From IMG/VR virus record IMGVR_UViG_3300007513_002281, positions 46,044 to 110,043 of that record: DNA of 64,000 nt; one strand, written 5' to 3'. Positions 10,896 to 63,739 of the stretch are shown one piece after another. The notes beneath the pieces are model-generated. The model searched no databases. It was not told the origin of the DNA and saw nothing but the letters and a program-made list of their open reading frames with translations. How positions within the stretch are numbered: position 1 is the first letter of the stretch; every line of letters starts with the position of its first letter. Position numbers and translations under genes: made by a program. Source of the DNA: a virus.

Positions 10896-13004
10896 GTGTG
10901 CTACAGCATGAAGATAACAAGAAGACATTTAAGAAGAATCATAAGAGAAGAGCTTCTTAGTGAGCAGTTTGCACAAGGCCTTGGGCACGAACCTGGTGCA
11001 GAGCAGTATGCTTCTGATCCTGATCCCGAGACAGAAGCAGGGTGGATAGATAAGTGTTGTCACACATGGACACAGATAGATCCCCCGCCGGGTAAGACGG
11101 CACCTTACTATGTTGATGGTTGTGGTAACCCAAGAGGTGAGCCCTACGTTGTGGGAGGAGAGCGCAAGTATTCATGCACATGGTCACGTGGTCCTGATGT
11201 TTACCTGGTCGATCGAATTGTAGACTTTGCTGCAGAAGAGGTCTTTCCAGATTTTATGGAAATTGCCATCGCAACACCGAAGTGGTTGTTGGACACCACA
11301 GTAGACATGGTTGTTGAAACAAGCAAGGATCTGCTAATCGTAGGAACAGTCATGACTACAAAGGGTGCTGTTCTTAAGACTGGAGTCATTACACCAGAAC
11401 AGTATGTGCAATCTCTTCTTAATCTTGCAGTCTTTGTCTTGCTGTGGTATGGCGGTCCAGTTGCATTCAGGGCTGCTGGCAATGTCCTTTTTTCTGCTCC
11501 GTCGACTGCTACAAACAGAATGGCTGGCGAGGCGGTAGAGAATTTAGTGTGGGCGAGAGCAAATACTTATTCTGATGACGTAGTAAGAGGGTCGTCAGAT
11601 GCAGTGAAGTATACTGCTAAGACTATGGACGATGCGATTACTGCCTCTAGAAGCCCAGCTGCAGCCAGCCCGTCACAAAGAACAACGGCATCACCTGATA
11701 AACCTGCAGCTTCTGTAGAGAGCCAGGCAGTAGATGAAATAATCCAGTCTCAGAAAGCAGCAGCAAGACAGGAGGCGAAATCTGAGCTTGCGAGAAGGAG
11801 CCAGGAAGCTCGAGCTGAATTAGGGACGGACGTCCCGCAACCTGTCGGAGAACCGGTTCCCCTGATTCTTAGAAGGCCCAGCTCGACGCAGCGGTCTGGG
11901 TGGGAAGACACTGTTAGAGTTGCTATGGGCGCATCTAAAAATCTTCCTGATATTGCATATACAACCTTTGCAAAAAAGCTTCTAGTTCGCATAGCCCAAG
12001 GCTTGGAACGATCGTCCGCCGATGACATCATGGTCATATATCCAGATAACATCCCGACCAGGCCTCCCTGGCTCAGCAGCGAGCCGCCCCCACTCAACCA
12101 GGTGTCGATCAGGCAGTTCACACTTAGTGATGTGATATCTTCTTGGGAGAGAATTCCCGGAAACCCTGCTGGAAAAGGGTTTAAGGATTTTGAGCCTGAA
12201 TTGATTGCATTTAACATTAGGAATGTGCTGGCAAGAGAAGAGGCAGAGCAGCTGGCAGCACAGATGTTTGATCAGTTTCCAGTTATGTCAAGTGTATACG
12301 GGAAGCCATCTCGTTTTATTGATGAATTTTATAATAATTTTGCTATCAGAGTGGGACGCACTTCAATCAACAGACTTGGAGCTCAGTACCCAAATCATAT
12401 CGAAATAACACCCTTTAGAAGTGGAAATGCTCTTTTAGATAAGTGGGTAGGAGGTAGACCGGGATCTAGGCCCCCTCCGCTACTCGGTGGGACAAGACAG
12501 TTTATAGCCAATACCCTAGACGATAATTCTCGTGTCTATACACATGAGCTTGATCACTGGTTTAGAACAAAAGTAATCGAAAAGACAGGCGCAGACCCGA
12601 GCCGACAATACAGGGATGTCTACGACGCAGAAGGGATGGTCATCCGCGAGAACTGGCTAAAAAAATGGTGGGAGTTTGAGGCTGAGTTCACAACAGTTCA
12701 GTTCAGGCTTTTAGACCAGATTGGATCAAAAGGTGCCACACCTGATGTCGTTAGAATACTCGAGAACCCAGTTGAATTTGAGAAATATTTTCTTGCAAAT
12801 CTCAAAGGCATCACTGTAGATTGGGAAGAGCCTATCTATAATCAATTGATGCAGCGGATAAGGGGAAGGCTGTTTGATACTGAGAGAGGTCTTTACTGGG
12901 CTCTTAGAAGGGCTCTTGAAATTCCAGACCCACCAAGGAAGCCTCTTCCAGAAAATATCCAGATAAATTTGAGAAGATGGTCGACGTTAGCAGGCATAAT
13001 TTAG
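10896..13004 (+). CDS. Tagged protein with HExxH metalloprotease motif
   Basis: Up to 702 residues. Start is GTG 10896 (AAGGAG 15 bases upstream) or ATG 10908; the latter begins exactly with the tag MKITRRHLRRIIREELLSE shared with other genes here. (I/L)-x-E sites in the tag suggest prohead-protease cleavage after targeting to the capsid. A hydrophobic segment spans about residues 170-205. A Ser/Ala/Pro-rich linker follows. HELDH at residues 550-554 fits the zinc-binding HExxH, with downstream EFEAE near 595 able to supply the third ligand of a gluzincin. I infer a virion-packaged protease candidate. The rest matches no family I know. Confidence 0.72.
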   Translation: MCYSMKITRRHLRRIIREELLSEQFAQGLGHEPGAEQYASDPDPETEAGWIDKCCHTWTQIDPPPGKTAPYYVDGCGNPRGEPYVVGGERKYSCTWSRGPDVYLVDRIVDFAAEEVFPDFMEIAIATPKWLLDTTVDMVVETSKDLLIVGTVMTTKGAVLKTGVITPEQYVQSLLNLAVFVLLWYGGPVAFRAAGNVLFSAPSTATNRMAGEAVENLVWARANTYSDDVVRGSSDAVKYTAKTMDDAITASRSPAAASPSQRTTASPDKPAASVESQAVDEIIQSQKAAARQEAKSELARRSQEARAELGTDVPQPVGEPVPLILRRPSSTQRSGWEDTVRVAMGASKNLPDIAYTTFAKKLLVRIAQGLERSSADDIMVIYPDNIPTRPPWLSSEPPPLNQVSIRQFTLSDVISSWERIPGNPAGKGFKDFEPELIAFNIRNVLAREEAEQLAAQMFDQFPVMSSVYGKPSRFIDEFYNNFAIRVGRTSINRLGAQYPNHIEITPFRSGNALLDKWVGGRPGSRPPPLLGGTRQFIANTLDDNSRVYTHELDHWFRTKVIEKTGADPSRQYRDVYDAEGMVIRENWLKKWWEFEAEFTTVQFRLLDQIGSKGATPDVVRILENPVEFEKYFLANLKGITVDWEEPIYNQLMQRIRGRLFDTERGLYWALRRALEIPDPPRKPLPENIQINLRRWSTLAGII

Positions 13005-13005
13005 C

Positions 13006-13035
13006 TTGAAAATTTAGCTGTCTATATGTTATAAT
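13006..13035 (+). promoter_or_regulatory. Promoter, TTGAAA-18-TATAAT, start codon six bases after -10
   Basis: TTGAAA (13006-13011), an 18-base spacer and TATAAT (13030-13035). The ATG of the next gene is at 13041, where transcription should begin, so the message may be leaderless. The -35 here is closer to the standard sigma-70 type than to the GTGTAA class. Confidence 0.6.
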
Positions 13036-13040
13036 GTAGC

Positions 13041-13946: not shown

Positions 13947-13968
13947 AATTACATAAAGGAGCGCTATT

Positions 13969-18573: not shown

Positions 18574-18855
18574 ATGAGAGTTAAAAAGAAAAAGCTTTTA
18601 GATTTGATTTCACTTCTTATTGAAGGAAATCAAGATGCTATTGAAGAGAAGCTTAGTGTATTTGCAGGTCCAAAGGATTCTAGAAGTATTATAATAAGTA
18701 ACGGCTTAAAGATAAGACATACAGATTCTGGCCTTGTTTACACAGTTGATAGGGTTTTATTTACACCCGGTGGAAATCCAGAAATAAGATGCACTCGTCC
18801 TGGGTGGTCCATAGTTATTACAGCAGATGAATTCAAGGATTATGAGAGGCACTAA
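18574..18855 (+). CDS. Unrecognised small protein, possible SH3-like barrel
   Basis: A 93-residue protein; GTG 18568 is an alternative start and neither has a strong ribosome-binding site. The N-terminus (MRVKKKKLLDLISLLIEG) is basic and amphipathic like the tags of nearby genes. The C-terminal half (KIRHTDSGLVYTVDRV... to VITADEF) looks like a small beta-barrel of the GDLV type seen elsewhere in the window. Its stop overlaps the start of the SOD-like gene. Confidence 0.6.
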   Translation: MRVKKKKLLDLISLLIEGNQDAIEEKLSVFAGPKDSRSIIISNGLKIRHTDSGLVYTVDRVLFTPGGNPEIRCTRPGWSIVITADEFKDYERH

Positions 18856-19547
18856 TGTCATTTACCAATAAAGATCTTAAAGAAAACATAAGAAAGTCTT
18901 TAAGCTTTGATCAAGATAAAGAGCAGCTTGCTGAAGCCTACGTTGCCCAACAGAAACAGTTTAATCTTTCAACTGAGCTTTTAAGCCAGGCTAACAAAGA
19001 TAATCATATTGAGCTTTATCAGAAGTACATTGAGAATTTTAATAGAATAAGTGCTGAGCTAGACACAGCAGATAGATCTGATGTTAATTCAAATAATTCT
19101 CAATATAGATCTCTTAAGATAGATGAGACATATAACATGAATGCTGCTTATCTTCATGAGCTCTATTTTGCTAACATTAGTGATCTTCACAGTGAGATAG
19201 CAATGGACTCTTTATCATATATGAGACTCTCTAGAGATTTTGGAACTTTTGATGCTTGGCAGAAGGACTTTATAGCGTGCTGCTCAGCATCCCGATGTGG
19301 CTGGGCTATGACATATCTAAATACATACACACAGAGCTATATGAATGTTCCAGTTGATCTTCATAGTCTTGAGGTTCCAGTCGGATGCTATCCGATCATT
19401 GTTATGGATGTATGGCAGCATGCATATTATAAAGACTATTTAAAGGATGTTAAGACATATACTTATGCAATGATGAAACAGCTAAATTGGCATGTCATAG
19501 AGTCAAGATTTAGAAAGGCTGAGAACGTCTTGTTGGCATTGAGGTAA
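18855..19547 (+). CDS. Fe/Mn superoxide-dismutase-like protein
   Basis: A 230-residue protein. The C-terminal block VMDVWQHAYYKDYLKDV, then LNWHVIESRF, matches the SOD signature D-x-W-E-H-A-Y-Y, with Gln for the Glu. An upstream segment NAAYLHELYF matches the second metal-binding His region. The first HHxxY pair of SODs is not found; that region reads QLAEAYVAQQ. Thus three of four metal ligands (His, Asp, His) are visible. It may be an active dismutase with changed metal, or a structural protein using the fold. It is coupled by single-base overlaps to the neighbouring genes, including a tagged, presumably virion gene. Confidence 0.7.
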   Translation: MSFTNKDLKENIRKSLSFDQDKEQLAEAYVAQQKQFNLSTELLSQANKDNHIELYQKYIENFNRISAELDTADRSDVNSNNSQYRSLKIDETYNMNAAYLHELYFANISDLHSEIAMDSLSYMRLSRDFGTFDAWQKDFIACCSASRCGWAMTYLNTYTQSYMNVPVDLHSLEVPVGCYPIIVMDVWQHAYYKDYLKDVKTYTYAMMKQLNWHVIESRFRKAENVLLALR

Positions 19548-20176
19548 TGATGAAAGTCAATAGTCGTAAATTTAAAGGTCTTATCCTATCTGAGCTAAAG
19601 AGAATAATTTCTGAGCAAGATGTTGATATTGATACAGATGTTAGTGAAGATCAACCAGAGCCTACATTTTCATCAGCGGATGACCAGATAGATAGCTTTA
19701 TTATTAAATTTGAAAATGAATCAATTAAAAGAGAGGGAGATGTCATTTCTGTCTCTCTAGATGAGTCTTTAGGATCACTCACACTTAGAGCTCTCCTAGA
19801 GCAGGAAGAAGCAGAGGAAGGGGCACCAGTAGAAGATGATGCAGATGTTGCTGTCGACGACGAATCAGAAGAGATGGGTTCATCTCCGTCGATAGAAGCA
19901 GAAGAGCTCCCTAAACCTGAAATTGATATTGATTCATTTAGTAAGAGAGTAGCGAGACTTGCTTTGAATTACGAGACACTTCTTAATATACCAGCAGTTA
20001 TAATCAATAGAACAGTTGACTTTCTTAGAGAAAACTATGAAGAGTCAGACGTTGAAAGGCTTAAGCAAATTCTTGAAACTGAATATGACTTTGAGATAGA
20101 CGGTAAAGAAAAGGAAACTCAAATTCCGTATGCTGTGGGGGCATGGGCTGGAGGCACAGGAGCAGGCGGTGCTTAA
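19547..20176 (+). CDS. Tagged acidic protein, virion-packaged candidate
   Basis: A 209-residue protein with tag-like N-terminus MKVNSRKFKGLILSELKRI (second ATG at 19550). LSE in the tag fits a T4-type (L/I)xE cleavage site. Residues 35-130 are very acidic and of low complexity. A helical domain follows, and the end is Gly/Ala-rich (GAWAGGTGAGGA), as in other phage structural proteins. No known domain. Confidence 0.65.
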   Translation: MMKVNSRKFKGLILSELKRIISEQDVDIDTDVSEDQPEPTFSSADDQIDSFIIKFENESIKREGDVISVSLDESLGSLTLRALLEQEEAEEGAPVEDDADVAVDDESEEMGSSPSIEAEELPKPEIDIDSFSKRVARLALNYETLLNIPAVIINRTVDFLRENYEESDVERLKQILETEYDFEIDGKEKETQIPYAVGAWAGGTGAGGA

Positions 20177-21842: not shown

Positions 21843-23960
21843 ATGAAAGTAAAAGTAAAGAAATCTGCTTTAGTTGACTTTTTAAAAAGTAAGATTAATG
21901 AAGATATCAGCTCAGCTGAGCACAACACAGTTTTAGGAATTGATATAGAGGACGAGGGTCCTATTGAACCAGTTGAGATGATGGCAACACAGCTTGCAGT
22001 TGAAAGACCCCCAGTTGATGACCCTGAGTTTATTCCCGCTTCTATCTCTGAGCTAGCAAACTCTGCGTCTGCAATAGCCCAGGAGTGCCCAGGGCCTCAG
22101 CTTGAGTGGTTTTACAGAAAGCTTCATGAGCTACTTGATGTTGCTCTTGATAGGCAGGATGCAGCAGAAAGAGATGACTCTGTGCTTCATAGTGAAGAAG
22201 AGGAGCTTAAGGATCTTAAGAACGGCGACCTGGCCGAGACTATTGTAAGAAAGTTTCTTAGGGGAAAAATTTTACCAGAGGGTCTAAATACAGATCAGCA
22301 GGATCTTGTTAATCGGGCTTCAGCCAGGATGCAAAGCATAGAAGATGCAGGCATCATGGCACAGCGGCTAGCAGATTTTTCTGAATTTGAAGGCATGGAT
22401 GAGTGGGAGATAAGTACAGAGCTCGAGGATGCCTTTACCTTTGGTGACACACCTCTTAGCCAGCCCAAAGCTGAGCCGAAAATTCAGCCAGAGCCAGAGC
22501 CACAGCCTGAAGAAGCAGAAGATGAAGATATTGATGACGACGGCTATGAAGACCCGCGTGGGCTTGAAGAGCCAATAACGAAGAGCACGAAAAAATCTAG
22601 GGCTATCGAGGATGCTACAGAATTCTTTTTAAAAAATAAGGACAAGTATGTTTTAGATCTATTTCAAATTAGGCTAGGGTCTGGAAGAGATGTTGTACCA
22701 TTTGACGTCAGATTTGCTAAAAACTCGGATGAATCCGAGTCTGTAGTAGATGGTGTTATGCATGATCTTAAAAATACTGGAGCATTTGGAGACGATATTG
22801 ATGATATAAGAGATCACTTAGAGAATTACGTCTTGTCATTCCTCAAGGATCCAGAGAAGGTATTACCACAAGATATACAAATTGGAGATGCTAACGCAAT
22901 TGTCGATGCTCTTATTAAAAAGCATGGGGATGCTGATGATCTTGATAAGTTTCTCCAAGACGCAGAGGACGCTGCAGCTCAAGCAGAAGATTTTGGGTAT
23001 ACTCCATTTTACATCCGTCTCATAGCTTCAGACTATTATCTTACACGTGACGAACCTGTTGAAGACACAGATGAATATTTTGGTGAAGAGGGTGAGGAGC
23101 TTAGTGATGAAGAGGTGGCTGAGATTAGAAAGAAATTTAGAGAGGAATCTCGACAACAGGCGCTTGATCTTGAATTTAGTCCGGGATCTCTAGTATTGAG
23201 TAACAAAGCTCTGCGGGCTTTAATGGAAGAAATTGCTTCTGATATGGGAACCGGTCTCGGAAACGTCAGAAATGTCGTATATGACGATCTTAAGATGATG
23301 GGAATGGACATGGATATTCTTAAGAAGCGCATGCGCGCCGCGAAGCTTCCGGGAGGTAGAGAGGCAATTCCATCTGTATACGACCCACTTCTTGTTACAG
23401 CAGCAGAGGACATTATAGACAAATCATACGAATTGTTTAGATATAGTCTTGATAGGTATGTTGAAGCTCTTGATCCTGATGAGGCAGCTGAGTTTGCAAG
23501 TGTTTTCAGCAGGGCATATGAACCAGGAATTGAGGGATACATGAGATTGCAAGATATATCCGGCGGTGAAAAGATAGATGATCCTGAGAACTTTAGAAGG
23601 ACGCGAAAGGCTTTTGAGGCAATTCAGATATTTTTAGATGAACTAGCTAAAGAGATGGTTCCAGACTCTCAAAAAGAAGCGAAAGAAGGCGGAATCAGAG
23701 CATTTATGCTTGATATTAAGGACTCTGGCGCACTGGAAGAGGATAGAAGAGATGACTTTGATGAATTCTTGGCAAGGAAAATTAAAAGATTTGACAGCTT
23801 TAAGAGGGATGAAGACTTCTTAATGTCAGCAATTGATACAGCACTTGCCAAGTCAGAAAAGCGTGCAGCAAGATACATTAAACAGCTAGAGAAAGAAAGG
23901 GTCGGCAGAGAGAAAAAACAGATGTCAGAACTTTCTCGATTAATTGATAGTGTTATTTAA
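21843..23960 (+). CDS. Large acidic tagged protein, virion-packaged candidate
   Basis: A 705-residue acidic, mainly helical protein. The N-terminus MKVKVKKSALVDFLKSKINE is basic then amphipathic, like the tags of neighbouring genes. A Pro/Glu-rich linker (residues 214-245, repeated EPEPQPEE) separates two helical regions. No enzyme motif is visible. Composition and neighbours suggest an internal head protein or scaffold. ATG is preceded by a weak GAGGTCGAAG site. Confidence 0.65.
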   Translation: MKVKVKKSALVDFLKSKINEDISSAEHNTVLGIDIEDEGPIEPVEMMATQLAVERPPVDDPEFIPASISELANSASAIAQECPGPQLEWFYRKLHELLDVALDRQDAAERDDSVLHSEEEELKDLKNGDLAETIVRKFLRGKILPEGLNTDQQDLVNRASARMQSIEDAGIMAQRLADFSEFEGMDEWEISTELEDAFTFGDTPLSQPKAEPKIQPEPEPQPEEAEDEDIDDDGYEDPRGLEEPITKSTKKSRAIEDATEFFLKNKDKYVLDLFQIRLGSGRDVVPFDVRFAKNSDESESVVDGVMHDLKNTGAFGDDIDDIRDHLENYVLSFLKDPEKVLPQDIQIGDANAIVDALIKKHGDADDLDKFLQDAEDAAAQAEDFGYTPFYIRLIASDYYLTRDEPVEDTDEYFGEEGEELSDEEVAEIRKKFREESRQQALDLEFSPGSLVLSNKALRALMEEIASDMGTGLGNVRNVVYDDLKMMGMDMDILKKRMRAAKLPGGREAIPSVYDPLLVTAAEDIIDKSYELFRYSLDRYVEALDPDEAAEFASVFSRAYEPGIEGYMRLQDISGGEKIDDPENFRRTRKAFEAIQIFLDELAKEMVPDSQKEAKEGGIRAFMLDIKDSGALEEDRRDDFDEFLARKIKRFDSFKRDEDFLMSAIDTALAKSEKRAARYIKQLEKERVGREKKQMSELSRLIDSVI

Positions 23961-25727: not shown

Positions 25728-25946
25728 ATGACATCGGAAAATAAATTTAAAGATAAGTCTACAACATACAATATTTTGCTTCCTAACGGTGAATCCATGG
25801 AGCTCAAAGCTACTCCTGAATTTTTTGAAGTCGTAAGAAAGACAATGAATTTATCAATTTTTGAACCTGTAACTGACTCTCATATTAGAAGATTTATTTG
25901 GGAAAGTTGCAATGAAGCCTTTGACAAACATGAAGGAGCATCCTAA
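25728..25946 (+). CDS. Unrecognised 72-residue protein
   Basis: A 72-residue protein after a possible own promoter. It has a short beta hairpin (YNILLPNGESMELKATPEF) and a C-terminal helix. The first part resembles small proteins that read out a parameter with an LPNG turn, but I assign no family. Confidence 0.6.
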   Translation: MTSENKFKDKSTTYNILLPNGESMELKATPEFFEVVRKTMNLSIFEPVTDSHIRRFIWESCNEAFDKHEGAS

Positions 25947-25968: not shown

Positions 25969-26250
25969 ATGAATCCTGGCAAATTAATTAGACAGCTCAT
26001 TAGAGAGTCAATTGCTTCCATGACTGTTTCTCTGTCAGACGGCACAGAAGTTGAGTATGGATCTGAGTCCCACATACAAGAATACGATAGAATGATAGGA
26101 GATCTTCAGAATATCAAGAAGTCTCTAAGGTCTAGGAAGAATAAAGAGAGTAGAAAAGAAGCAGCTGGCCTACAGAATGCTATTGGGTCACTTCGTCATC
26201 TTAGAGCTAAGGCTCTTAGAGCTTATACAAAAAGAAATCTTTTAGATTGA
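25969..26250 (+). CDS. Small tagged protein
   Basis: A 93-residue protein beginning MNPGKLIRQLIRESIASM, a clear member of the tag set (I-R-E). After the tag lies a short strand pair and a basic coiled coil rich in Arg/Lys (residues 50-85). No enzyme motif. A small DNA-associated internal virion protein is one possibility. Confidence 0.65.
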   Translation: MNPGKLIRQLIRESIASMTVSLSDGTEVEYGSESHIQEYDRMIGDLQNIKKSLRSRKNKESRKEAAGLQNAIGSLRHLRAKALRAYTKRNLLD

Positions 26251-28736: not shown

Positions 28737-30227
28737 ATGAAAGTAAGTGAACTTTATCTACGCCAGCTTGTAAGAGATAGTCTTTTCAAAAGACTCGTCA
28801 CTGAAGCTGATGCCGAAGAAGAAGATTTTGAGAGGGAGATGCCTGAAATACTCCCCCCGGAAATATATGAGCCTAGTGAGTCTGTTCAAGGCGAACCCGA
28901 CGAGCCAGAGCCTGAAGAAGATTCTAGTGAGGCTGATAAGGTAGTTGTTAATCTATCTACAGCAGCAGGCATGGAGGTTGCAACAGCATTAATATCTGCA
29001 AATCCAGATAGAGTAAAATATGGTAGAAGGCTAGACAGAGTAGATAGGCTTTATCCTGTAAAGGATCCAGAAAATCCTGTGACGCAGGCTGAGTTTATTG
29101 AGATGATAAAGCGTGCTTTCAAGCCTGAAGCGGGTCACATCTGGACCATTTCAAAAAGAAGCGAGATGTTTGGGTTGCAAAATAAAAGCGGAAAATTTCC
29201 TATCACAGTATTTATTCCACACCCTGACCAAATTGCAAGTGCTAATCCTGGCGAAGCCATTCCGACCATGCTAACTCAGGGAAGGAACGAGGGTGATGAG
29301 TATGAGGAGGCTGCATACACTGAGTTTTCTGAAGCGTCTAAGGGAAGCAAAGTGTCTCCATTGGTTAAGTCTGTAATTGATGGAATATCAAAAGACAGAG
29401 TCAAGAGAGACCTTGACCCTATCGACATCGTGAAATGGAATGTTCGGAGTACAGGAACTGAGAGTACAAAGCTCCCTTTTACAGACGAGGTCAGGGATGT
29501 TGGAGAAACAATATCAGACATAACACTTGAGCGAGGAGATGATAAAGTCTATATCTCGCTTAAGAACAAGAAAGGGTCTACAATAGCTAACAGGGGCTAT
29601 TCAGGAAAGTTTTCATTTAGTGATGATGATTCTGTTGTTTTTAATGTGGATGGCGGTGCAAAGAGGTCGCAGCCTGCTCTTAAGAAAATTGATGAATTTT
29701 TAAAAGCTCTCGGTGTCAACACAGGTATTGCTGCTAAAGGGTTCCAGGATTACGCTAAGTATAGCACATTAGATGATGAGCAAAAGCTTGATCTTGGTAG
29801 CGTTGACTATAAATTTAATACACAGCCCGAACTTTTAAAGCTCTTTAAAGACAAGCTGCAAGTAGATGAAGAGAAGGTTAATAATTTTCTTAGAGCCTCA
29901 GTTGGAATGGGATACTACTACGTTAGAGAAGTTTCACCAGGTAAAGCAAAAGTTATTCCGCTATTGACTAGAGAAGAGCTTGATGACTTTGTCGGTAAGA
30001 TAGATGTTAACAGCCTTGAGATCTTATACCCAGAGGCAAACAATGATAGACAGTCGAAAGGTATAGAGCTTAAGGTTAAAACGAAGGGCAAGGAAGATAG
30101 ACCGTATAAAGCTTTTAAAGTCAGAGTGAGAAATACAGATGGTGAGATTCTTCCCAATAAGATGCAAGTCGATGTTGTCAAAGAGGAGTTCATGAGAAAA
30201 TGGGTCAAGAAATTCCTAAAAAAATAG
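28737..30227 (+). CDS. Tagged protein with possible PD-(D/E)XK-like core
   Basis: A 496-residue protein beginning MKVSELYLRQLVRDSLFKRL, tag-like but with R-D instead of x-E; LVTEAD follows. Residues 40-65 are acidic. Near residues 260-285, SDITLERGDDKVYISLKNKKG followed by a NRGYSG turn recalls the D...xSLK core of restriction-like nucleases seen in some marine phage proteins, but catalytic residues are not certain. The C-terminus is basic (KWVKKFLKK). A packaged nuclease is a hypothesis only. Confidence 0.6.
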   Translation: MKVSELYLRQLVRDSLFKRLVTEADAEEEDFEREMPEILPPEIYEPSESVQGEPDEPEPEEDSSEADKVVVNLSTAAGMEVATALISANPDRVKYGRRLDRVDRLYPVKDPENPVTQAEFIEMIKRAFKPEAGHIWTISKRSEMFGLQNKSGKFPITVFIPHPDQIASANPGEAIPTMLTQGRNEGDEYEEAAYTEFSEASKGSKVSPLVKSVIDGISKDRVKRDLDPIDIVKWNVRSTGTESTKLPFTDEVRDVGETISDITLERGDDKVYISLKNKKGSTIANRGYSGKFSFSDDDSVVFNVDGGAKRSQPALKKIDEFLKALGVNTGIAAKGFQDYAKYSTLDDEQKLDLGSVDYKFNTQPELLKLFKDKLQVDEEKVNNFLRASVGMGYYYVREVSPGKAKVIPLLTREELDDFVGKIDVNSLEILYPEANNDRQSKGIELKVKTKGKEDRPYKAFKVRVRNTDGEILPNKMQVDVVKEEFMRKWVKKFLKK

Positions 30228-30945: not shown

Positions 30946-31434
30946 ATGCGCTTTAATGCAAACAGGCTTGCTAGACTTGCAGGTCTTTCTAATGATTCAG
31001 GCTCAGGCGTTCTAAGAGAGGGACGCCAGCTACAAGAGCTTCAAAATAGCCGTGAAAGAGATGAGTACGGTGAAGACGGAGACTACGGCGATGAGATGCT
31101 TGCTGAGGACAGAGACGACGACGACGAGGTCCTTGAGATAAGTGAGACTATGCTTAGGGACGAGATTCGTCGCATGAGAGTGGCTCGACTTAATGAGAGC
31201 AGGACTAGGCAATCTGTGGCAAGAAAGACTTCTCGTCACAGAAGAAGACGTCAGGATAGCTCAGCGCTTCAAGAGGCAAAGCTTCGAAAGGAGATTAGAA
31301 GTCAGATCAGTGAGATCTTTGAAGATCTTCAGCTGACAAGCAAGTGGATCTACGGTAAGAATCTTCCCAGAAGAAGCTCACCTGGCAGGGTCACGATGGG
31401 TGCACCCGGAATTGGATTCAAAAACTTTAAGTAA
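30946..31434 (+). CDS. Basic/acidic protein with variant N-terminal tag
   Basis: A 162-residue protein. MRFNANRLARLAGL is a second type of basic amphipathic N-terminus, followed by VLREG with L-R-E, a possible prohead-protease site. An acidic run (residues 43-65) precedes an Arg-rich region (85-105) and a C-terminal helix with a Gly-rich tail. The charge pattern suits an internal head or scaffold-like protein. It is followed by a strong terminator. Confidence 0.65.
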   Translation: MRFNANRLARLAGLSNDSGSGVLREGRQLQELQNSRERDEYGEDGDYGDEMLAEDRDDDDEVLEISETMLRDEIRRMRVARLNESRTRQSVARKTSRHRRRRQDSSALQEAKLRKEIRSQISEIFEDLQLTSKWIYGKNLPRRSSPGRVTMGAPGIGFKNFK

Positions 31435-41314: not shown

Positions 41315-41734
41315 ATGAGAAGGTCAGAGATAAAAAAGTTTATTAGAGAAATGTGCGGAGAGTCTGATCATTATACAGGAGAAGATTTGCATACACATAT
41401 TAGAGATTCTCTTTCTAGCGGCGCTGCTCCTTTCGTTGATGTAAGTTGCTCAGATAGAAACGGATATGCTGTCGTCTGCGATGTTTTAGATGACCTTAGC
41501 AGGAGAGATTCTCGGTATAGTGTTGATATGGGATTTGAAGGATTTTTTGAAAATGAACTAGGAGAAGATGTTTTTTTTCTTTTTTCAATAGACGAAGTAG
41601 ATCCATCATCTCTTGAGATTCATGACGTAGATGATGAAAGATACGAAGAGCAAATAGATGACTGCAGCTTAAATGAAAAGTTAAGTTTGAGAAGCATAAC
41701 AAGAGACTTCCTTTTAGAAAAAATTGTTGACTAG
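41315..41734 (+). CDS. Tagged acidic protein
   Basis: A 139-residue protein after AAAGGAG. MRRSEIKKFIREMCGES is a clear tag (I-R-E). The rest is acidic, with beta-like and helical segments and no recognised motif. Its isolation between enzymes shows that tag genes are scattered, not only clustered. Confidence 0.68.
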   Translation: MRRSEIKKFIREMCGESDHYTGEDLHTHIRDSLSSGAAPFVDVSCSDRNGYAVVCDVLDDLSRRDSRYSVDMGFEGFFENELGEDVFFLFSIDEVDPSSLEIHDVDDERYEEQIDDCSLNEKLSLRSITRDFLLEKIVD

Positions 41735-52146: not shown

Positions 52147-52320
52147 ATGGATATCATAAAAAAGATCTTTCCAGTCGTTTGGCTGGTTTTTATTTTTATT
52201 AATATTGGGTTGTGCTGTTTCTGGTTTCTATGGGGAGATACAGGAATGATTCTATGGCATTTGCTTATGGGATTTCTATGTCACATTGGATATATTAGAT
52301 CAAATTCAAATGAAAATTAG
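52147..52320 (+). CDS. Small two-helix membrane protein
   Basis: About 57 residues from ATG 52147, after the terminator. Two hydrophobic helices (FPVVWLVFIFINIGLCCFWFL and MILWHLLMGFLCHIGYI). No motif. It overlaps the metzincin gene by 11 bases and may be co-translated with it. Confidence 0.55.
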   Translation: MDIIKKIFPVVWLVFIFINIGLCCFWFLWGDTGMILWHLLMGFLCHIGYIRSNSNEN

Positions 52321-52963
52321 TAAATCTATTCTTATACTGTTTATCTTTCTATTTCATCTTCCAGCAGGGGTGACATCAAAAGAAGCCCTGTCTGATACTT
52401 CTGTGTCTGAGCTTAGTGGTGAAGAAGACCTAGAGTCAGTCTCAAGAAGGGGACAGGTCATCGGCTATTGGTCACGACCGCCAAGTGTAAGAATCTGCGA
52501 TGGTGCTCCTGTTACTATGACACGAGTTAATCAGGCAGTTGAATTTTGGCGACGGCTAGGGTATGAATTTGGTTCAATCGTAAGAGATAGCTCTGCTGAC
52601 TGTTCTTTTACAAGAATTGAAGGAAGCATAATGATAGGCCTTCCAGATCAAAACTTTGTTGAACCTAACCTTGCTATGACAAGGACTCTAACATCTGATG
52701 TAACTAAAGAGATTGTAATGGCTAAAATATCAATAAAGTCTGAATCTGCCACGACTGAGAGAGTTCTCGAGCATGAATTCGGTCATGCTCTAGGCTGGCG
52801 ACATTTTAATAGAAGATATCATATAATGAACGGAGAGCTTCAGCGAGGAGGCTGGACAGTAACAGGCTTAAGAAGGTCGGAGCTTATTGAAAAGCTACAG
52901 GAATCGTTTCCAGATGAAACGTCTGGTTTGATAAATTTAACAGTTGAAGTTTGTGAAGAATGA
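52310..52963 (+). CDS. Secreted metzincin-type zinc metalloprotease
   Basis: About 217 residues from ATG 52310. A Sec signal peptide (MKISKSILILFIFLFHLPAG) is followed by a catalytic domain with LEHEFGHALGWRH, the full HExxHxxGxxH zinc motif, and a Met-turn HIMNG a few residues later: the metzincin pattern. Cys at DGAPV and SADCSF suggest a disulfide. It would act in the periplasm or outside the cell, perhaps on host surface proteins or during lysis. Small size fits a single catalytic domain without a prodomain or haemopexin. Confidence 0.85.
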   Translation: MKISKSILILFIFLFHLPAGVTSKEALSDTSVSELSGEEDLESVSRRGQVIGYWSRPPSVRICDGAPVTMTRVNQAVEFWRRLGYEFGSIVRDSSADCSFTRIEGSIMIGLPDQNFVEPNLAMTRTLTSDVTKEIVMAKISIKSESATTERVLEHEFGHALGWRHFNRRYHIMNGELQRGGWTVTGLRRSELIEKLQESFPDETSGLINLTVEVCEE

Positions 52964-53000
52964 CTGCAGGGATGATAGTTAATAGATGCAGGTGGGAAAA

Positions 53001-53240
53001 ATGACAATAACAAAAACTCAAGCATTAAAAAAAATTATCAAAGAAGAGCTTAAAGACATTCTGTCAAATGACTCAGCGGCTGATGTTAAGGCAGTTGAAG
53101 ATGCATTTGCTGGGGGAGACAATCTATCAAGTCCAGTTGATCATCTCAAGGCTCAAGGGATCAAAGAGACTAGAGTTAAAAGTGCTCGTGCCTTGAGAAA
53201 AATAATAGCCCAAGAGCTTAATAGACTAAATCGAATTTAG
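53001..53240 (+). CDS. Small protein with tag-like motif at both ends
   Basis: A 79-residue protein; ATG 53001 follows GGTGGG. The N-terminus MTITKTQALKKIIKEELKDIL is a clear tag (I-K-E), and the C-terminus SARALRKIIAQELNRLNRI repeats the same pattern (KII-x-x-EL). Between them are about 40 residues of acidic/neutral linker. It may be a minimal tagged protein or a tandem-tag module. Convergent with the minus-strand gene that follows. Confidence 0.65.
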   Translation: MTITKTQALKKIIKEELKDILSNDSAADVKAVEDAFAGGDNLSSPVDHLKAQGIKETRVKSARALRKIIAQELNRLNRI

Positions 53241-53639: not shown

Positions 53640-53909
53640 ATGCTTATTTCTGAAATACAACTTAGACATCTGATCCGAGAATCTTTAACAAAAACAGATA
53701 AGGATGAGATAGCGAGAATTGCTAGAAGAGAAATGAGAGATCTTTTCAAGGATGAGTATATGAAAAAGATGGAGAAAGAGATTGAGTCTGTCTTGAAGTC
53801 AAAGAACTATGAAAAGGACATCGTTGATCTTGTTAAAAAGGTAATGATCAAGGTTTACAAGGAGCTATCTTTTAACCAGCCGCACATAATTAGACAAGTC
53901 CGGGTCTAA
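53640..53909 (+). CDS. Small tagged helical protein
   Basis: About 89 residues; GTG 53628 and ATG 53640 are both possible. MLISEIQLRHLIRESLTKTD is a clear tag with I-R-E. The rest is a charged helical bundle (RREMRDLFKDEYMKKMEKEIES) ending in HIIRQVRV. No enzyme motif; an internal virion protein candidate. Confidence 0.65.
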   Translation: MLISEIQLRHLIRESLTKTDKDEIARIARREMRDLFKDEYMKKMEKEIESVLKSKNYEKDIVDLVKKVMIKVYKELSFNQPHIIRQVRV

Positions 53910-59735: not shown

Positions 59736-59745
59736 TTTATCATAA

Positions 59746-59769: not shown

Positions 59770-59808
59770 TATCTATTTTATGTCTATTTATTATATAGGA
59801 GATGCTAA

Positions 59809-60087: not shown

Positions 60088-60157
60088 AAAGGTAATGTTC
60101 TTAGACGCAGAGTGATATTGCCTTCGTCGCTAGATATTTATTTCAGATGGCGTTTGG

Positions 60158-62740
60158 ATGAAGATTTCTAATAAAACATTACGTGAAATGATACTGGCTG
60201 AGATAAGTAGCCAGATCCTTTTAGAGCAAGGTATGACAGGCATTCATAGCATGCCGAATTACGCAATTCCTCAAGGGCTCTCCGCCCAGCTTCAAGGGGG
60301 TACATCTGGTGCTCTATCCAGGCTTGCTAGCTCTAATCCGCTCAGAGCAGCAGGAAAAGCGCTTGGCGCTCAGATAGTCTACGCTGTTGGTGAGACACTC
60401 ATTGAGCTTAGTGTTCAGAACTGGCTCGCCGAATATCGATTTCGTGTGATGATGGAGTCGTATCAAGCAGCTCTTAAGAGAATAATTACAAGAGCCTATG
60501 CTGCAACCGGGGAGACAGAACGCTACTGCGCATTGAGGTTTCCACGTACTCAGGGTGTCTATACAAACGAAGTGCTGGTAGATGCTCATGGGAGAGAGCA
60601 TGAAATTGAGGGTGCTGCCCAGACAAGAGAATTTACTGATGTGATTGTGGCGGCTCCTGAGCAATATTCTGATCCTAGCTTGATTGATTCATTTAAAGTT
60701 ATTGATACAAGCACAGCCGAGACTCTTCCTCTCGAAAGTGCCCTTGGTCGCACAATTGCAACTAACATGTATGCTAGCTCTGGTGAACCTGTTGTTATTA
60801 TTACACAAGATCTTGCAGGGCAGATTCGTTACGATCCAGATACTGGAAGGCCAGTGGAGTCGACTACAGCAGTTAGCTGCCCAGATTCAGATCTATTTGA
60901 TAGGGTGGATGATTCTGGGAGGCTAGTTGCTGCTGACCTGTGCTGGCCTGGTTTTAAGGCGATTATAGGTGATATATCTGCACAGGGAAGCGATGTCTAT
61001 AACGGTGCGCTTAGAGATATATGGAATGAGGAGACAGATGTTGGACCCATTGCAAGCTCATATGCACCCTTTGAAAGAGAGACATTTACATCTGTTTTTA
61101 ACTTGCCCTGGGGCGGTCCGGATGTATATCAGATCTGGAATCAGGAAATGATTGATCAGTGGGATTACTTCTTTGAGAGGGTTAAGCAGCAGATGAGCCA
61201 GGATGTGGGCTATGGGGCTGACTTAGAGCATGAGCTTTTCTTAGGCTTTGACCTTGGAGAGCCTCCAGGCGGATGGGCACCGGGCTGCAGAGAAGTGCCT
61301 GGGTATCAAGAAGGTATCCAGGTTCCATATAAGGTAGACATCCAGGACATTGAAAACTATCCAGGGGATCCAGCTGAAGGCGGTGTTAGCCCAGCTGAGG
61401 CAGCTGCCCAAGGTCTTGAAACAAGCTGTCCCACACTAATTCGATGGGATGGAAACAGGATTTACTATAATTTTGAAGAGTGGAGAAGCGCACCCGATTG
61501 CTCTTGGGCCCTGAGGGACACAGTTGTGCTTAGCCCGCATGACGGAAGAACGGGCATCAGTCAAATTGAATCAGCGCTAAATAGTGCCCTCGGTGATGGA
61601 GTATTCCAAGGTGTCCAGGTTGTCAAGTCACCAGAAGACAGACTGCAGGCTTCGGAAGCTGAGCTCCTAAGAAATGAGCAGGCAAGTTCATTCTTGCGTT
61701 CTTATAGTAATTTTGCGCTAGTCACATTTAGAAATGATTTAGCAGGTGATTTTTCAGTCCGGGGCTTAGGGACTGGGTCACAGGCATCAGCTAGTGAGAA
61801 GATGCTGGCAAGAATCCAGATGGGAATTAATCGGTGGCTCATATCAATCTTTATAAACCCGCAGCTTCCAGTTCAGTCTGCATCTGAAGAGACAGAACTC
61901 TCCACTAGAGCGTGGGTCGCCCAGATGGAAGAGATTTCGCTTGGGCCAAATGAGGTGGGGCAGTGGGGATCCCACACAGACTCGGTCGGCTCTGCAATCA
62001 CCATGGCAATCAGAGGCGCAAACAGTCTTCTTGCTGACGGTGACTATGAAGATCAAGGTCTTTTACCTGTATTTAGGGACGAGATCCTGCAGAGAAATAC
62101 TGTTATAGCTGGGATGGAAGCACAAGAAGATGAGCCTGGATCAGCTGAGTCCTTTATCTTGCCTCCTGACATAGAGTATAGACTGCTGGGTGTAAACAGA
62201 GACCCACAACATTCCGAAGCGGGATACTTTGCCTATGTTGCCCTAAAGGCTAGAAGAGAGTGGGGTGACTTTGATGGTGATGGTAGAATCACAGCAATTG
62301 ATAGGTTTTATGACCCAGACTCTGGTGAGACTATAGGTACAGAACAGCAAGAGATAGAGCGGGTCGGTGATGATGACACAATTGATGAGTGGAACAAGTT
62401 ACAAGAACATAAGCTAAACAGGCTAATTGAGCAGAATGAATCTACTACAGCAAGACTTGCATTTGAAGAGATGAAGGAGGCTGTTCTCTCTAGTCTTGAG
62501 GCAATTCCGAATCTGGATCTAGATTATGAATTTGTTCCGATGACAATCGAGGGGACAGTGCTAGAGCCATCTGGACAGATGACAAGTGCCTGGACTACAG
62601 AGAACTGGGACATTCAAAATATTCTCAGAGGACATGCACCGGTTCTTAGGATCTGGATGCGGCTGCACGAGGGCAGCATAGAGTCCTTCGAAGCAGAAGC
62701 TGAGGAAGAGATTGAAGCAGCCATGGGGACATACGGATGA
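60158..62740 (+). CDS. Very large tagged protein, virion-packaged candidate
   Basis: An 860-residue protein. MKISNKTLREMILAEISSQILLEQ is a clear tag with L-A-E and L-L-E. A hydrophobic helix (about 65-85) follows. Most of the chain is unrecognised, with acidic and Trp/Gly/Pro-rich segments and several Cys. DFDGDGRITAID near residue 704 looks like an EF-hand or dockerin-type calcium loop. Size and tag suggest an internal virion protein or injected effector, comparable in place to T4 Alt or N4 virion polymerase only in a general sense. It overlaps the next gene by 4 bases. Confidence 0.68.
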   Translation: MKISNKTLREMILAEISSQILLEQGMTGIHSMPNYAIPQGLSAQLQGGTSGALSRLASSNPLRAAGKALGAQIVYAVGETLIELSVQNWLAEYRFRVMMESYQAALKRIITRAYAATGETERYCALRFPRTQGVYTNEVLVDAHGREHEIEGAAQTREFTDVIVAAPEQYSDPSLIDSFKVIDTSTAETLPLESALGRTIATNMYASSGEPVVIITQDLAGQIRYDPDTGRPVESTTAVSCPDSDLFDRVDDSGRLVAADLCWPGFKAIIGDISAQGSDVYNGALRDIWNEETDVGPIASSYAPFERETFTSVFNLPWGGPDVYQIWNQEMIDQWDYFFERVKQQMSQDVGYGADLEHELFLGFDLGEPPGGWAPGCREVPGYQEGIQVPYKVDIQDIENYPGDPAEGGVSPAEAAAQGLETSCPTLIRWDGNRIYYNFEEWRSAPDCSWALRDTVVLSPHDGRTGISQIESALNSALGDGVFQGVQVVKSPEDRLQASEAELLRNEQASSFLRSYSNFALVTFRNDLAGDFSVRGLGTGSQASASEKMLARIQMGINRWLISIFINPQLPVQSASEETELSTRAWVAQMEEISLGPNEVGQWGSHTDSVGSAITMAIRGANSLLADGDYEDQGLLPVFRDEILQRNTVIAGMEAQEDEPGSAESFILPPDIEYRLLGVNRDPQHSEAGYFAYVALKARREWGDFDGDGRITAIDRFYDPDSGETIGTEQQEIERVGDDDTIDEWNKLQEHKLNRLIEQNESTTARLAFEEMKEAVLSSLEAIPNLDLDYEFVPMTIEGTVLEPSGQMTSAWTTENWDIQNILRGHAPVLRIWMRLHEGSIESFEAEAEEEIEAAMGTYG

Positions 62741-63099
62741 GAGGCAGCCAGAGAAACGTGGTTATTGCTGAAACCAGACTAAGGATGTTAATAAGGGCTA
62801 GTCTACAGAAGCTGCTAGAAGCTGAACAGAGCAGCTCCAGCAAGCCCCCAGAGGAGGGTGGCTCAGAATATTCACAAAGCTCAGGGCAGAGCTCCGACGA
62901 CACGCAGTACATAGGGACAGGCGAAATGCCCTCGACAGAGGACCCGTGCCACACAGCAGGGGCCACGGTCAGCTCATTGCATAGTCAGATTGAGAATCTT
63001 CCAAAGCCAGGGGCTGATGACTATAACTCAGTAACTGCAGCTGATCTGCAAAGACAGCTTCAAGACGCCCAGAAGAATCAGGCTGAAAAGTGCAGCTGA
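62737..63099 (+). CDS. Tagged Ser-rich protein
   Basis: A 120-residue protein in an ATGA overlap. VIAETRLRMLIRASLQKLLEAEQ (residues 9-31) is the tag placed after a short leader, with L-E-A-E as possible cleavage site. A Ser/Pro/Gly-rich disordered stretch (32-70) and a helical end follow. No enzyme motif. Confidence 0.65.
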   Translation: MRGSQRNVVIAETRLRMLIRASLQKLLEAEQSSSSKPPEEGGSEYSQSSGQSSDDTQYIGTGEMPSTEDPCHTAGATVSSLHSQIENLPKPGADDYNSVTAADLQRQLQDAQKNQAEKCS

Positions 63100-63130
63100 T
63101 AGATATAATTAAAGATTGGCAGGGATTAAA

Positions 63131-63739
63131 ATGAAAATCACGCGTAGACAGTTAAGAAGACTGATAAAAGAAGAGATGAGTCTCATGATGATGGATCCAA
63201 TGGACCGTCATGACCATCACCGCAGCGGCGGCTGCGGTGATGAAAGAAAGACAGGTAAGAAGTGCTCTAGCTGCGCGGCGAAGAAGCCCTGCGGCTGCGG
63301 TGGTGACATGTCAGACATCAGAGGTCTAGACGGTGAAATGCCTGATGATCTTTACGGAATGGAAGACGAGGGTAGCGCTTGGGCCAGTGGTGATGTTGTT
63401 CACGAACCGATGTCTGGAGATGAGGCCTTTGGTGCTGGGTTTGCCATGGGACAGGAAGAGCGGGATGCTTTCAGCTATACAGGTGATGTGTCTGATCTAG
63501 GAGAAGATGAGGCTATAGGTATCGGATACCATGCTGGCCTGATGGGGTTAGACGATGCACCTCACGGACATGACATGGCAGTTCCGCATCCGCAAAGCTA
63601 TGACGCTGTGATGGAGTTTCTTAGATCAAACCCAGAGCTTGTTGAGATGGCTGTCGAGGAGCTCATGGGAATGACAGGGTCCACCTGTCAGGTTTCAACC
63701 AGGATGGCAATTGCAGACTATCTAGTTGAGAGTCTCTGA
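63131..63739 (+). CDS. Tagged Cys-rich protein
   Basis: A 202-residue protein; ATG 63131 is chosen since it begins exactly MKITRRQLRRLIKEEM, almost identical to the tag at 10908. A His/Asp-rich segment and a CGxCG-rich region (residues 37-60: GCGDERKTGKKCSSC, KPCGCGG) could bind zinc. The remaining acidic part contains two short repeats (AFGAGFAMGQEERDAFSYTGDVSD / AIGIGYHAGLMGLDDAP) and a helical end. No known family. Confidence 0.7.
   Translation: MKITRRQLRRLIKEEMSLMMMDPMDRHDHHRSGGCGDERKTGKKCSSCAAKKPCGCGGDMSDIRGLDGEMPDDLYGMEDEGSAWASGDVVHEPMSGDEAFGAGFAMGQEERDAFSYTGDVSDLGEDEAIGIGYHAGLMGLDDAPHGHDMAVPHPQSYDAVMEFLRSNPELVEMAVEELMGMTGSTCQVSTRMAIADYLVESL

What the first reader, a model, noticed from the sequence alone, without database searches (positions are those of the whole stretch)
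10896..63739. Shared N-terminal peptide on many unrelated proteins: a possible capsid-targeting and injection code
At least nine proteins start with a basic, amphipathic peptide of the form (T/S)xxxLRxxIxEE: genes at 10908, 19547, 25969, 41315, 53001, 53640, 60158, 62737 and 63131. Weaker forms occur at 21843, 23965, 24766, 24926, 28737, 30946 and 46691. What follows differs completely: a HExxH protease, an AMIN-like protein, a Cys-rich protein, acidic chains. Nearly all have (I/L)-x-E about 10-20 residues in (IRE, IKE, LAE, LSE, LLE). In T4, internal proteins and Alt carry a short N-terminal capsid-targeting sequence that gp21 cleaves after (L/I)-x-E. I infer an analogous system that loads a set of effectors into the head, using one address tag. 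The sequence similarity is seen; the role is inferred.
Basis: partly seen in the sequence, partly recalled or inferred. Interest (0 to 1): 0.88.

Follow-up and report, generated by a model that had tools for sequence, protein, structure and literature searches.

The report
Phage address tag for head cargo
A group of large, mostly uncultured relatives of phage T4 puts the same short peptide on the front of many otherwise unrelated proteins, and its position, its built-in cut site and the genes around it indicate that it is an address label for loading proteins into the virus head, although no one has yet looked inside the particles.

Summary
The shared N-terminal peptide is real. All nine strong cases are present on bodies of unrelated sequence (12 tagged proteins, 12 clusters); a tenth, missed, is a superoxide dismutase. 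Only 1 of 7 'weaker' cases holds.

A profile from nine window tags finds 22 N-terminal tags in 12 related records, 0.3 expected. Relatives carry a T4-type head module (S77 protease, gp23 capsid), absent from this contig. Between protease and scaffold lie two small genes with tag-like N-termini; one family is homologous to window protein 52986 (E 3e-12).

All 45 distinct dismutases keep [LIV]-x-E|[ASN] behind the leader; 33 of 33 capsid proteins have [LI]-x-E at the gp23-type place. Window protein 10896, tagged, also ends like the scaffold (RWxxLAG). Five homologous cargo pairs swap this tag for another with the spacing of T4's capsid-targeting sequence. One 8-kb stretch has 15 of 16 genes tagged. 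The codon pattern gives at least 120 viral stretches, 7 in 84,980 prokaryote genomes.

Verdict: a new, greatly expanded variant of T4's capsid targeting. Packaging and cleavage are well supported by comparison; ejection is inferred.

The parts
10896..13004 (+). Tagged 702-aa protein (ATG 10908): N-terminal tag (core nt 10917-10958), HELDH zinc-protease-like motif, and scaffold-like C-terminus RWSTLAGI (nt 12975-12998)
   Evidence: tag 32 bits; C-terminal motif shared with scaffolds; no Pfam match at E<=0.5, no PHROG at 0.05, best PDB sequence match E 0.23
18855..19547 (+).
   Evidence: 15.6/19.0 bits; PF02777 E=3e-16; [LIV]xE|[ASN] in 45 of 45 distinct sequences, window included; E27 invariant in 35; SOD fold with separate N-terminal helix 5-15 and low-confidence linker
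19547..20176 (+). Tagged 209-aa protein (core nt 19559-19600), possible site IISE|Q
   Evidence: 22.3 bits as seed, 6.0 leave-one-out; homolog G004:24254 tagged at 21.5 bits, but homologs G001:97189 and G026:238659 are not
25969..26250 (+). Tagged 93-aa protein (core nt 25975-26016)
   Evidence: 25.4 bits as seed, 9.3 leave-one-out; tagged homolog G004:17243, 45% identity
25728..25946 (+). 72-aa protein with a tag-like segment near its C-terminus (nt 25872-25913)
   Evidence: 16.7 bits, internal
28737..30227 (+). Weaker tagged 496-aa protein (core nt 28746-28787), possible site LVTE|A
   Evidence: 11.9 and 10.5 bits; phrog_8438 E=4e-6 over the C-terminal part
41315..41734 (+). Tagged 139-aa protein (core nt 41318-41359)
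   Evidence: 24.7 bits as seed but only 2.5 leave-one-out
52986..53240 (+). Tagged 84-aa protein (ATG 53001; N-terminal core nt 53013-53054, second copy at the C-terminus nt 53181-53222); homolog of family B, encoded between prohead protease and scaffold in relatives
   Evidence: family-B HMM E=3.2e-12; body without tag still matches two members at E<=1e-6; internal copy 15.1 bits
53628..53909 (+). Tagged 93-aa protein (ATG 53640; core nt 53649-53690)
   Evidence: 30.0 bits; 17.3 leave-one-out
60158..62740 (+). Tagged 860-aa protein (core nt 60167-60208), possible site ILLE|Q
   Evidence: 24.2 bits; 10.3 leave-one-out; no Pfam or PHROG match, PDB sequence match only E 0.04
62737..63099 (+). 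Tagged 120-aa protein (core nt 62767-62808), possible site LLE|A
   Evidence: 27.0 bits; 10.9 leave-one-out
63116..63739 (+). Tagged Cys-rich protein (ATG 63131; core nt 63140-63181) in a tagged-gene cluster that continues in sister record G021; its tag-coding DNA is the seam of a 601-base difference from G021
   Evidence: 32.0 bits; 24.6 leave-one-out; G021 cluster; seam
30946..31434 (+). No N-terminal tag; N-terminus RLARLAGL resembles the scaffold C-terminal motif, followed by VLRE|G; a tag-like segment near residue 108
   Evidence: internal 11.8 bits; tag profile -8.0

Best explanation
The peptide is a prohead-core (capsid) targeting sequence. While the head is being built, the basic amphipathic N-terminal helix (T/S/N)xxx(L/I)(R/K)x(L/I/M)IxE binds the scaffold core (binding partner inferred). 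The cargo is enclosed as the gp23-type shell closes. The phage's S77 (gp21-type) prohead protease then cuts after (L/I)-x-E in or just behind the helix and frees the mature protein inside the head. The cargo is probably ejected with the DNA to act in the new host cell (inferred). The same phages can use a second signal that mimics the scaffold's own C-terminus (RWxxLAG), seen on window protein 10896. Shown by comparison: the tag, its site signature, its genomic linkage to T4-type head modules, tag swapping. Inferred: binding partner, actual cleavage, presence in virions, ejection.
For: (1) Tag beyond chance and N-terminal. (2) Head modules of 18 relatives plus Mel-JY01: S77 protease, small genes, scaffold-like protein, gp23 capsid (family matches). 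Between protease and scaffold, family A in 18 of 18 with LxE|G in 15 of 15 aligned; family B called in 13 of 18, its tag over 12 bits in 9 of 13; window 52986 is a family-B homolog (E 3e-12). (3) Cut-site signature: SOD 45 of 45 distinct sequences, capsid protein 33 of 33; in 344 non-redundant tagged proteins [LI]xE lies within 8 residues after the core in 131 (38%) versus 84 of 1287 untagged (6.5%). (4) RWxxLAG: 20 of 24 matches in 2,112 proteins lie at the C-terminus, 13 of them scaffolds, one window 10896; in a further 2,898 proteins 21 of 22. (5) T4 CTS: residues 4 and 7 target, 8 and 10 process (PMC9026906, passages); IPIII starts MKTYQEFIAEA; the spacing equals the tag's L5..8 I9.E11 and that of the W-type tag. 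(6) Five of 22 W-tagged proteins have R-tagged homologs, e.g. 64% identity over 210 aa starting 9-10 residues behind the tags. (7) S77 protease in 18 of 27 tag-bearing contigs of at least 50 kb versus 2 of 13 random-pattern ones; 10 of 11 versus 1 of 5 at 100 kb or more. (8) AF2: the tag is a separate helix, the cut site lies in a low-confidence linker.
Against: No virion proteomics, no measured cleavage. The window's contig has no S77 match; its head module is not on it. Family A passes the 12-bit threshold in only 2 of 18 modules (3.5-13 bits). Nine of 27 tag contigs have no detectable S77 gene (fragments may explain this). 213 of 344 tagged proteins have no [LI]xE within 8 residues after the core, so if cut they are cut inside it or elsewhere. 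Homologs of tagged proteins are often untagged: without the scaffold query, 359 homolog pairs reach 12 bits, 85 lie at 6-12 and 142 below 6; of 101 distinct untagged targets 5 carry the W-type tag. Of 48 SOD rows only 10 reach 12 bits, and some lost the DxWxH metal motif. Tag cores sometimes lie internally or C-terminally. Scaffold N-terminal segments resemble the tag only weakly: -3.8 to 9.4 bits in 19 scaffolds, near what the best window of a random protein gives; 12.3 bits in one.
Confidence: 0.85

Rival explanations
1. The tag marks accessory parts of the prohead core itself (like T4 gp67/gp68): the proteins help build or size the head and are chopped up or expelled at maturation, not delivered to the host.
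For: Families A and B sit in the core-gene position between protease and scaffold; window 52986 is a family-B homolog; many tagged proteins are small.
Against: Tagged enzymes (SOD, Nudix E 2e-16, Zeta-toxin kinase E 9e-12), GNAT and kinase cargos under the W-type tag, and cargo sets of unrelated sequence are not expected of a building kit; the SOD leader has one strictly conserved site.
Confidence: 0.2
2. The peptide is a docking helix for another phage compartment or machine (replisome, nucleus-like shell, membrane, tail) and only happens to be common in T4-type phages.
For: The tag is an amphipathic basic helix; partner binding was not tested; tags occur on genes far from the head module; many homologs lack it.
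Against: Conserved prohead-protease-type site, tag-like genes between protease and scaffold, scaffold-like C-terminus on a tagged protein, swap with a tag of T4-CTS spacing. The 12 tagged genes do not include DnaE, GroEL, DnaJ, sigma factor or tail sheath and tube (names by eye).
Confidence: 0.07
3. A 5'-end cassette (promoter, ribosome site, first codons) is copied by recombination in a gene-acquisition hotspot; the peptide itself has no function.
For: Tagged genes form dense arrays of orphan genes (15 of 16 in L276); identical codons at shared residues exceed codon-usage expectation in three records (0.48-0.52 versus 0.35-0.39); the window and G021 differ by 601 bases lying between two 55-base copies of tag-coding DNA, so the tag DNA does act as a seam or collapsed in assembly.
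Against: In the window contig codon identity is near expectation (0.41 versus 0.37), so protein sequence is what is kept; homologous cargos exchange one tag for another of the same spacing; the SOD site is kept while leader length varies from 13 to 52 residues.
Confidence: 0.06
4. Chance resemblance or an ordinary domain start.
For: Two seeds are weak by leave-one-out (2.5 and 6.0 bits) and six of seven weaker cases fail.
Against: 22 versus 0.3 expected in held-out records; 83 versus 1.0 in 1,913 proteins; 1 of 747 genes in random viral loci; 7 stretches in 84,980 prokaryote genomes.
Confidence: 0.01

Closest known systems
T4 capsid-targeting sequence (CTS) of internal proteins IPI, IPII, IPIII and Alt
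   Same: Short N-terminal propeptide on unrelated proteins; hydrophobic pair three residues apart followed by I-x-E (Y4, F7, I8, E10 in IPIII; PMC9026906 passages); S77 prohead protease and gp23-type capsid in relatives; variable cargo set; enzymes among the cargo.
   Different: Different sequence (basic, LRxLIREE, 4 residues longer before the core by eye): 0 of 58 ORFs in a 45-kb T4 stretch, which holds ipIII in part and ipI but not all T4 cargos, reach 10 bits. Tens of tagged genes per record (37 of 217, 27 of 398, 37 of 395 at 12 bits); dense arrays; extra scaffold-like C-terminus; packaging not yet shown.
Long N-terminal propeptides of ejection proteins in giant phages (phiKZ, SPN3US)
   Same: Head proteins with propeptides removed by a prohead protease (PMC5694885 passages).
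   Different: In SPN3US several of those propeptides exceed 100 residues and the passages seen describe no shared short address; here one short shared motif and a T4-type S77 protease.
Encapsulin cargo-loading peptides (recalled, no call)
   Same: A short terminal motif directs cargo into an HK97-fold shell; the RWxxLAG C-terminus would work alike if it binds the shell.
   Different: Here the motif belongs to the phage scaffold's C-terminus; binding to the shell is not tested.

Membership tests
T4-type capsid-targeting sequence | Short shared N-terminal peptide on otherwise unrelated proteins | tested here: met
T4-type capsid-targeting sequence | Spacing of targeting and processing residues (4, 7 / 8, 10 of IPIII) | tested here: met
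   Column make-up of 44 training tags: L/I at 5 (43 of 44), L/I/M at 8 (38), I at 9 (41), E at 11 (27); T4 sequence; roles of T4 residues. Partly by construction of the profile.
T4-type capsid-targeting sequence | (L/I)-x-E cleavage site at the end of the propeptide | tested here: met
   As sequence signature only; within 8 residues after the core in 131 of 344 tagged proteins
T4-type capsid-targeting sequence | S77 prohead protease and gp23 capsid protein in the same phage | tested here: met
   Relatives: 11 of 14 records; tag contigs 18 of 27 (S77) and 15 of 27 (Gp23 over cut-off); not on the window's own incomplete contig
T4-type capsid-targeting sequence | Same amino-acid sequence as the T4 CTS | tested here: not met
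   No profile match at 10 bits in a T4 stretch. Hence 'works like', new variant
T4-type capsid-targeting sequence | Tagged proteins are inside the virion and lack the propeptide | not testable with these tools
   needs virion proteomics
T4-type capsid-targeting sequence | Tagged proteins enter the host with the DNA | not testable with these tools
   inferred from T4 (PMC9026906 passages)
Far-T4 phages (RM378 / Mel-JY01 / immuto neighbourhood) | Structural genes grouping with this clade | tested here: inconclusive
   tail tube closest to Mel-JY01 (44%), LR756508 (43%), immuto (41%), RM378 (36%); T4-like order in relatives; no tree made
Fe/Mn superoxide dismutase (window 18855) | SOD fold and family match | tested here: met
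   PF02777 E=3e-16; Foldseek 1coj E=1.3e-13, TM 0.80
Fe/Mn superoxide dismutase (window 18855) | Complete set of metal ligands and activity | tested here: inconclusive
   DxWxH kept in the window protein but lost in several orthologs; the other ligands not assigned

The most novel reading that the evidence does not exclude
Large T4-type phages share an exchangeable two-signal address code: an N-terminal CTS-like helix of lineage-specific sequence but fixed spacing (R-type, W-type, T4-type) and a scaffold-mimic C-terminus. Orphan-gene arrays that fill parts of their genomes are libraries of head-packaged, injected effectors that can be read off from sequence alone, tens per phage.
Probability: 0.5. 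Interest if true: 0.92.

Novelty: new variant of a known kind. Interest (0 to 1): 0.82.

Why it matters
Which of the many orphan proteins in large phages are carried in the particle and enter the host first is an open question, answered so far phage by phage with proteomics. A sequence tag that predicts head packaging would turn uncultured phage genomes into lists of candidate early effectors (anti-defence proteins, nucleotide and protein modifiers, stress enzymes such as a packaged superoxide dismutase) and would offer new peptides for loading proteins into phage heads. It also makes T4 head biology testable far outside T4: same protease family, same cut logic, different address.

Tried and rejected
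N-terminal half of the scaffold as the source of the tag: VTPxIRxFIEEQL is tag-like in some scaffolds (9.4, 8.8 bits; 12.3 in G057:C5) but lower in most, a level the best window of a random protein also reaches; left as weak. T4 late promoter TATAAATA: 4 matches in the window, 3.3 expected. T4 gp67 scored with the profile: -4.7. Tags in deposited phages: one tag peptide found only the uncultured marine phage LR756508, where 18 of 61 ORFs of a 49-kb stretch reach 10 bits; one W-type peptide found nothing; Mel-JY01 has one hit over 14 bits; stretches of RM378 (70 ORFs), immuto (46) and T4 (58) none at 10 bits. No paper names Mel-JY01. Homologs of window 10896 and 28737 in viral contigs: only identical copies, so no structure of 10896 was attempted. 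Sequence search of 10896 and 60158 against solved structures: best E 0.23 and 0.04, not credible. Relaxed hits taken as chance: PrkA kinase of G002 at 9.7 bits, window 2275 at 10-11 bits; of the 18 W-type matches, L259:4074 looks like chance. ART-like cargos: only weak Pfam matches (E 3e-4 below cut-off, 0.04-0.06), kept as a hint. Print search: 'RQLRRII' none; 'IIREE' with phage one irrelevant 1896 text; 'WRKFL' with phage two irrelevant papers; broader searches; PMC4360716, PMC12619734 and PMC13282480 were searched for a few terms only. Preprints and most subscription papers were not searchable. Of the seven prokaryote stretches with the codon pattern one (L270) shows no tagged gene on gene calling.
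Full report
What the window is. The window is bases 46,044-110,043 of a 110,043-base viral record. It has tail genes upstream and, by eye, DnaE, GroEL, DnaJ and a sigma factor, with five tRNAs. The closest tail-tube relatives among deposited phages are Mel-JY01, an uncultured 484-kb marine phage (LR756508), the Flavobacterium phages immuto, and RM378, i.e. the 'Far-T4' neighbourhood (no tree made). No S77 prohead protease is on this contig, which begins downstream of the capsid genes, so the head module had to be studied in relatives.

The observation. A 14-residue profile from the nine strong cases was scored on all 142 predicted genes of the contig. Twelve N-termini reach 14 bits against 0.085 expected from shuffling; two internal windows do. 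Nine are seeds; the new ones are contig 38254 (minus strand), contig 1583 and window 18855. Two seeds (41315, 19547) are weak when left out of the profile. On 12 other phage records not used for training the nine-seed profile gives 22 N-terminal hits (18 distinct) against 0.3 expected; three records have none. A broader profile, trained on 44 tags, gives 83 against 1.0 in 1,913 distinct proteins, with 20 internal windows. The bodies are unrelated: 12 tagged proteins make 12 clusters here, 37 make 32 in sister record G021, 27 make 26 in G026, 37 make 36 in G057:C5. At shared residues codons agree only slightly more than codon usage predicts in this contig (0.41 versus 0.37), more so in the other three (0.48-0.52 versus 0.35-0.39).

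Scale. Sister record G021 (121 of 140 predicted proteins of the contig identical in it) runs past the end of the window and shows that the window ends inside a tagged-gene cluster: 37 of its 217 genes are tagged at 12 bits. A 305,838-base contig filed under a Methylococcaceae bin (NHDW01000006) carries an S77 protease and 37 tagged genes of 395, its scaffold among them at 12.3 bits; in one 8-kb stretch 15 of 16 predicted genes are tagged. A contig filed under Halobacteriovorax has 14 of 15 in one 8-kb stretch; the S77 match of that bin lies on another contig. Fifty-five random-pattern viral loci contain 1 tagged gene of 747; the 120 tag-pattern loci, chosen for a tag, contain 321 of 1,635.

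Link to the head. In 18 relatives plus Mel-JY01 the order is S77 protease, small genes, scaffold-like protein, gp23-type capsid protein (family matches; the scaffold has no family match and is named from position and composition). Between protease and scaffold lies family A (18 of 18; directly behind the protease in 12, one or two genes further in 6). Its leader ends in LxE|G in 15 of 15 aligned members with x variable, but its tag score is only 3.5-13 bits, over 12 in 2 of 18. Family B was called in 13 of 18, over 12 bits in 9 of 13. A profile of family B finds window protein 52986 with E 3e-12 and nothing else significant in the contig; without the tag the body still matches two members (43% and 53% identity). 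All 27 contigs of at least 50 kb among the 80 displayed tag-pattern rows were tested: 18 have the S77 protease, 15 a gp23 capsid gene over cut-off; of the 13 random-pattern contigs of that size, 2 and 2. At 100 kb or more the protease count is 10 of 11 against 1 of 5. Tag contigs are partly related to each other, so these are not independent draws.

Cut site. Window 18855 is an Fe/Mn superoxide dismutase by family (E 3e-16) and predicted fold. The model shows a separate helix at residues 5-15 (the tag), a low-confidence linker, then the enzyme fold. Forty-seven ortholog loci were found. In all 45 distinct sequences, window included, a variable leader (13-52 residues, depending on the start chosen) ends in [LIV]-x-E|[ASN], with x free (the pattern was written after seeing the sequences); E27 is invariant in 35 aligned. 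The tag score itself fades: 10 of 48 rows reach 12 bits. Thirty-three distinct capsid proteins, recognised by an NQA motif in relatives, Mel-JY01 and two tag-pattern loci, all have [LI]-x-E|[AQSVT] where by eye T4 gp23 has FLTE|A. Over 344 non-redundant tagged proteins [LI]xE occurs within eight residues behind the core in 131, against 84 of 1287 untagged proteins, and falls to background further on. The core's own IxE is part of the profile and is not counted as evidence.

A second signal. The motif [RK][W..]xx[LM]AG[ILVM] occurs 24 times in 2,112 proteins, 20 times at the very C-terminus: 13 of these are the scaffold proteins, and the other seven include window protein 10896 (with its G021 copy), which has one of the two best tags, and tagged protein 251856 of G057:C5; four others are untagged. 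In another 2,898 proteins a slightly wider form is C-terminal in 21 of 22 matches: 16 in relatives, all scaffolds or, from their place before the capsid gene, scaffold pieces; 5 in tag-pattern loci; none in random loci. Window protein 10896 thus carries the scaffold's tail as well as the N-terminal tag.

Tag swapping. Searching for homologs of tagged bodies turned up a different N-terminal peptide, MKxLLxxWRKxx[LIV]xE ('W-type'): 18 of 1,580 proteins of the tag-pattern loci in the first 30 residues (one probably chance), against 5 matches elsewhere in them; 0 of 677 in random loci, with 6 elsewhere; 1 of 999 in the close relatives, with 12 elsewhere. Five of 22 W-tagged proteins have an R-tagged homolog, e.g. 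a P-loop kinase 64% identical over 210 residues starting 9-10 residues behind the tags, and another protein 60% over 253. Many homologs are simply untagged: leaving out the scaffold query, 359 pairs reach 12 bits, 85 lie between, 142 are below 6, and of 101 distinct untagged targets 5 are W-type. In T4's IPIII the targeting residues are 4 and 7 and the processing residues 8 and 10 (PMC9026906, passages); MKTYQEFIAEA has spacing Y..FI.E, the W-type W..[FY][LIV].E, and this window's tag L..[LIM]I.E.

DNA-level trace. The window contig and G021 are identical up to the tag of gene 63116 and again from it onward (99.7%), but G021 has 601 more bases there, holding the body of one further tagged gene between two 55-base copies of tag-coding DNA. 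Either recombination between tags removed a gene, or the assembly collapsed the repeat. I raised the cassette rival slightly for this.

Cargo. Family matches over cut-off: SOD, Nudix and Zeta-toxin kinase, DUF5824, and, under the W-type tag, AAA_33 kinase, guanylate kinase and GNAT acetyltransferase; PrkA in a 9.7-bit protein I take as chance. An ADP-ribosyltransferase match stays below cut-off. Scanned against Pfam were 10 window proteins (6 of them over 12 bits), 40 R-type proteins from other records (5 of them at only 8-11 bits) and 10 W-type proteins, chosen by length and interest, not at random; most have no match.

Mechanism and limits. The best reading is a capsid-targeting sequence that works like T4's: the tag binds the core, the protein is enclosed, the S77 protease removes the tag, the mature cargo remains and is probably ejected. 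Shown by comparison: tag, site signature, gene linkage, motif sharing with the scaffold, swapping. Not shown: binding, cutting, presence in virions, ejection. The T4 review already suggests the CTS as a way for T4-like phages to add various proteins to their heads (passages), so the concept is known; the new points are the different address, its scale, the second signal and the swapping. I found no description of this tag in the searched open-access library, which holds no preprints and few subscription papers.

Noticed in passing
window 63123-63177 versus G021 (L338): Window and sister record differ by 601 bases between two 55-base copies of tag-coding DNA; the window's gene 63116 joins the start of one tagged gene to the body of the next. 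Natural recombination or assembly collapse.
   Followed up: partly
L135:12207-13874 (minus), i.e. G007:52204-53874; similar split match in G009: The prohead protease gene is interrupted in frame by an intein (Intein_splicing E 2e-5 below cut-off, LAGLIDADG_3 over cut-off in G007).
   Followed up: partly
L002:1880-2863 and L340 (G021:122822, 124294, 128326, 131052): A ~25-residue module, ELSxxEAxxLxxLVxxAVxDAxDD, recurs in five proteins of this phage and its sister, four of them tagged; perhaps another docking element.
   Followed up: partly
L374-L420 (SOD orthologs): Several phage SOD orthologs have lost the DxWxH metal motif (e.g. L404, L414, L416, L418, L419), so the protein may be structural in some phages.
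   Followed up: no
L272-L276 (contigs NHDW01000006, PBIO01000025, DJKT01000044): Contigs with dense tagged-gene arrays, one of them a 306-kb contig with a phage head protease, are filed inside bacterial genome bins.
   Followed up: partly
G057:C5 6513-6929 and 286693-287109: Tagged genes of the same length and start near both ends of the 306-kb contig suggest a long terminal repeat.
   Followed up: no
window 52286-52963: Protein next to tagged 52986 with a weak matrixin-type metalloprotease match (PF00413 E 1e-3, below cut-off).
   Followed up: no
L049, L063, L067, L068, L070, L073, G003, G012 near the neck gene: Small proteins of ~62 aa, M(T)EELIRKIVRAILQER followed by a conserved KWAVYPKKGGKRLGTHDTKSG segment, carry a weaker tag form (9-18 bits).
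   Followed up: no
window 32221, 6182, 7289, 34926: By eye the phage encodes GroEL, DnaJ, a DnaE-type polymerase and a sigma-70-like factor; none is among the tagged genes.
   Followed up: no
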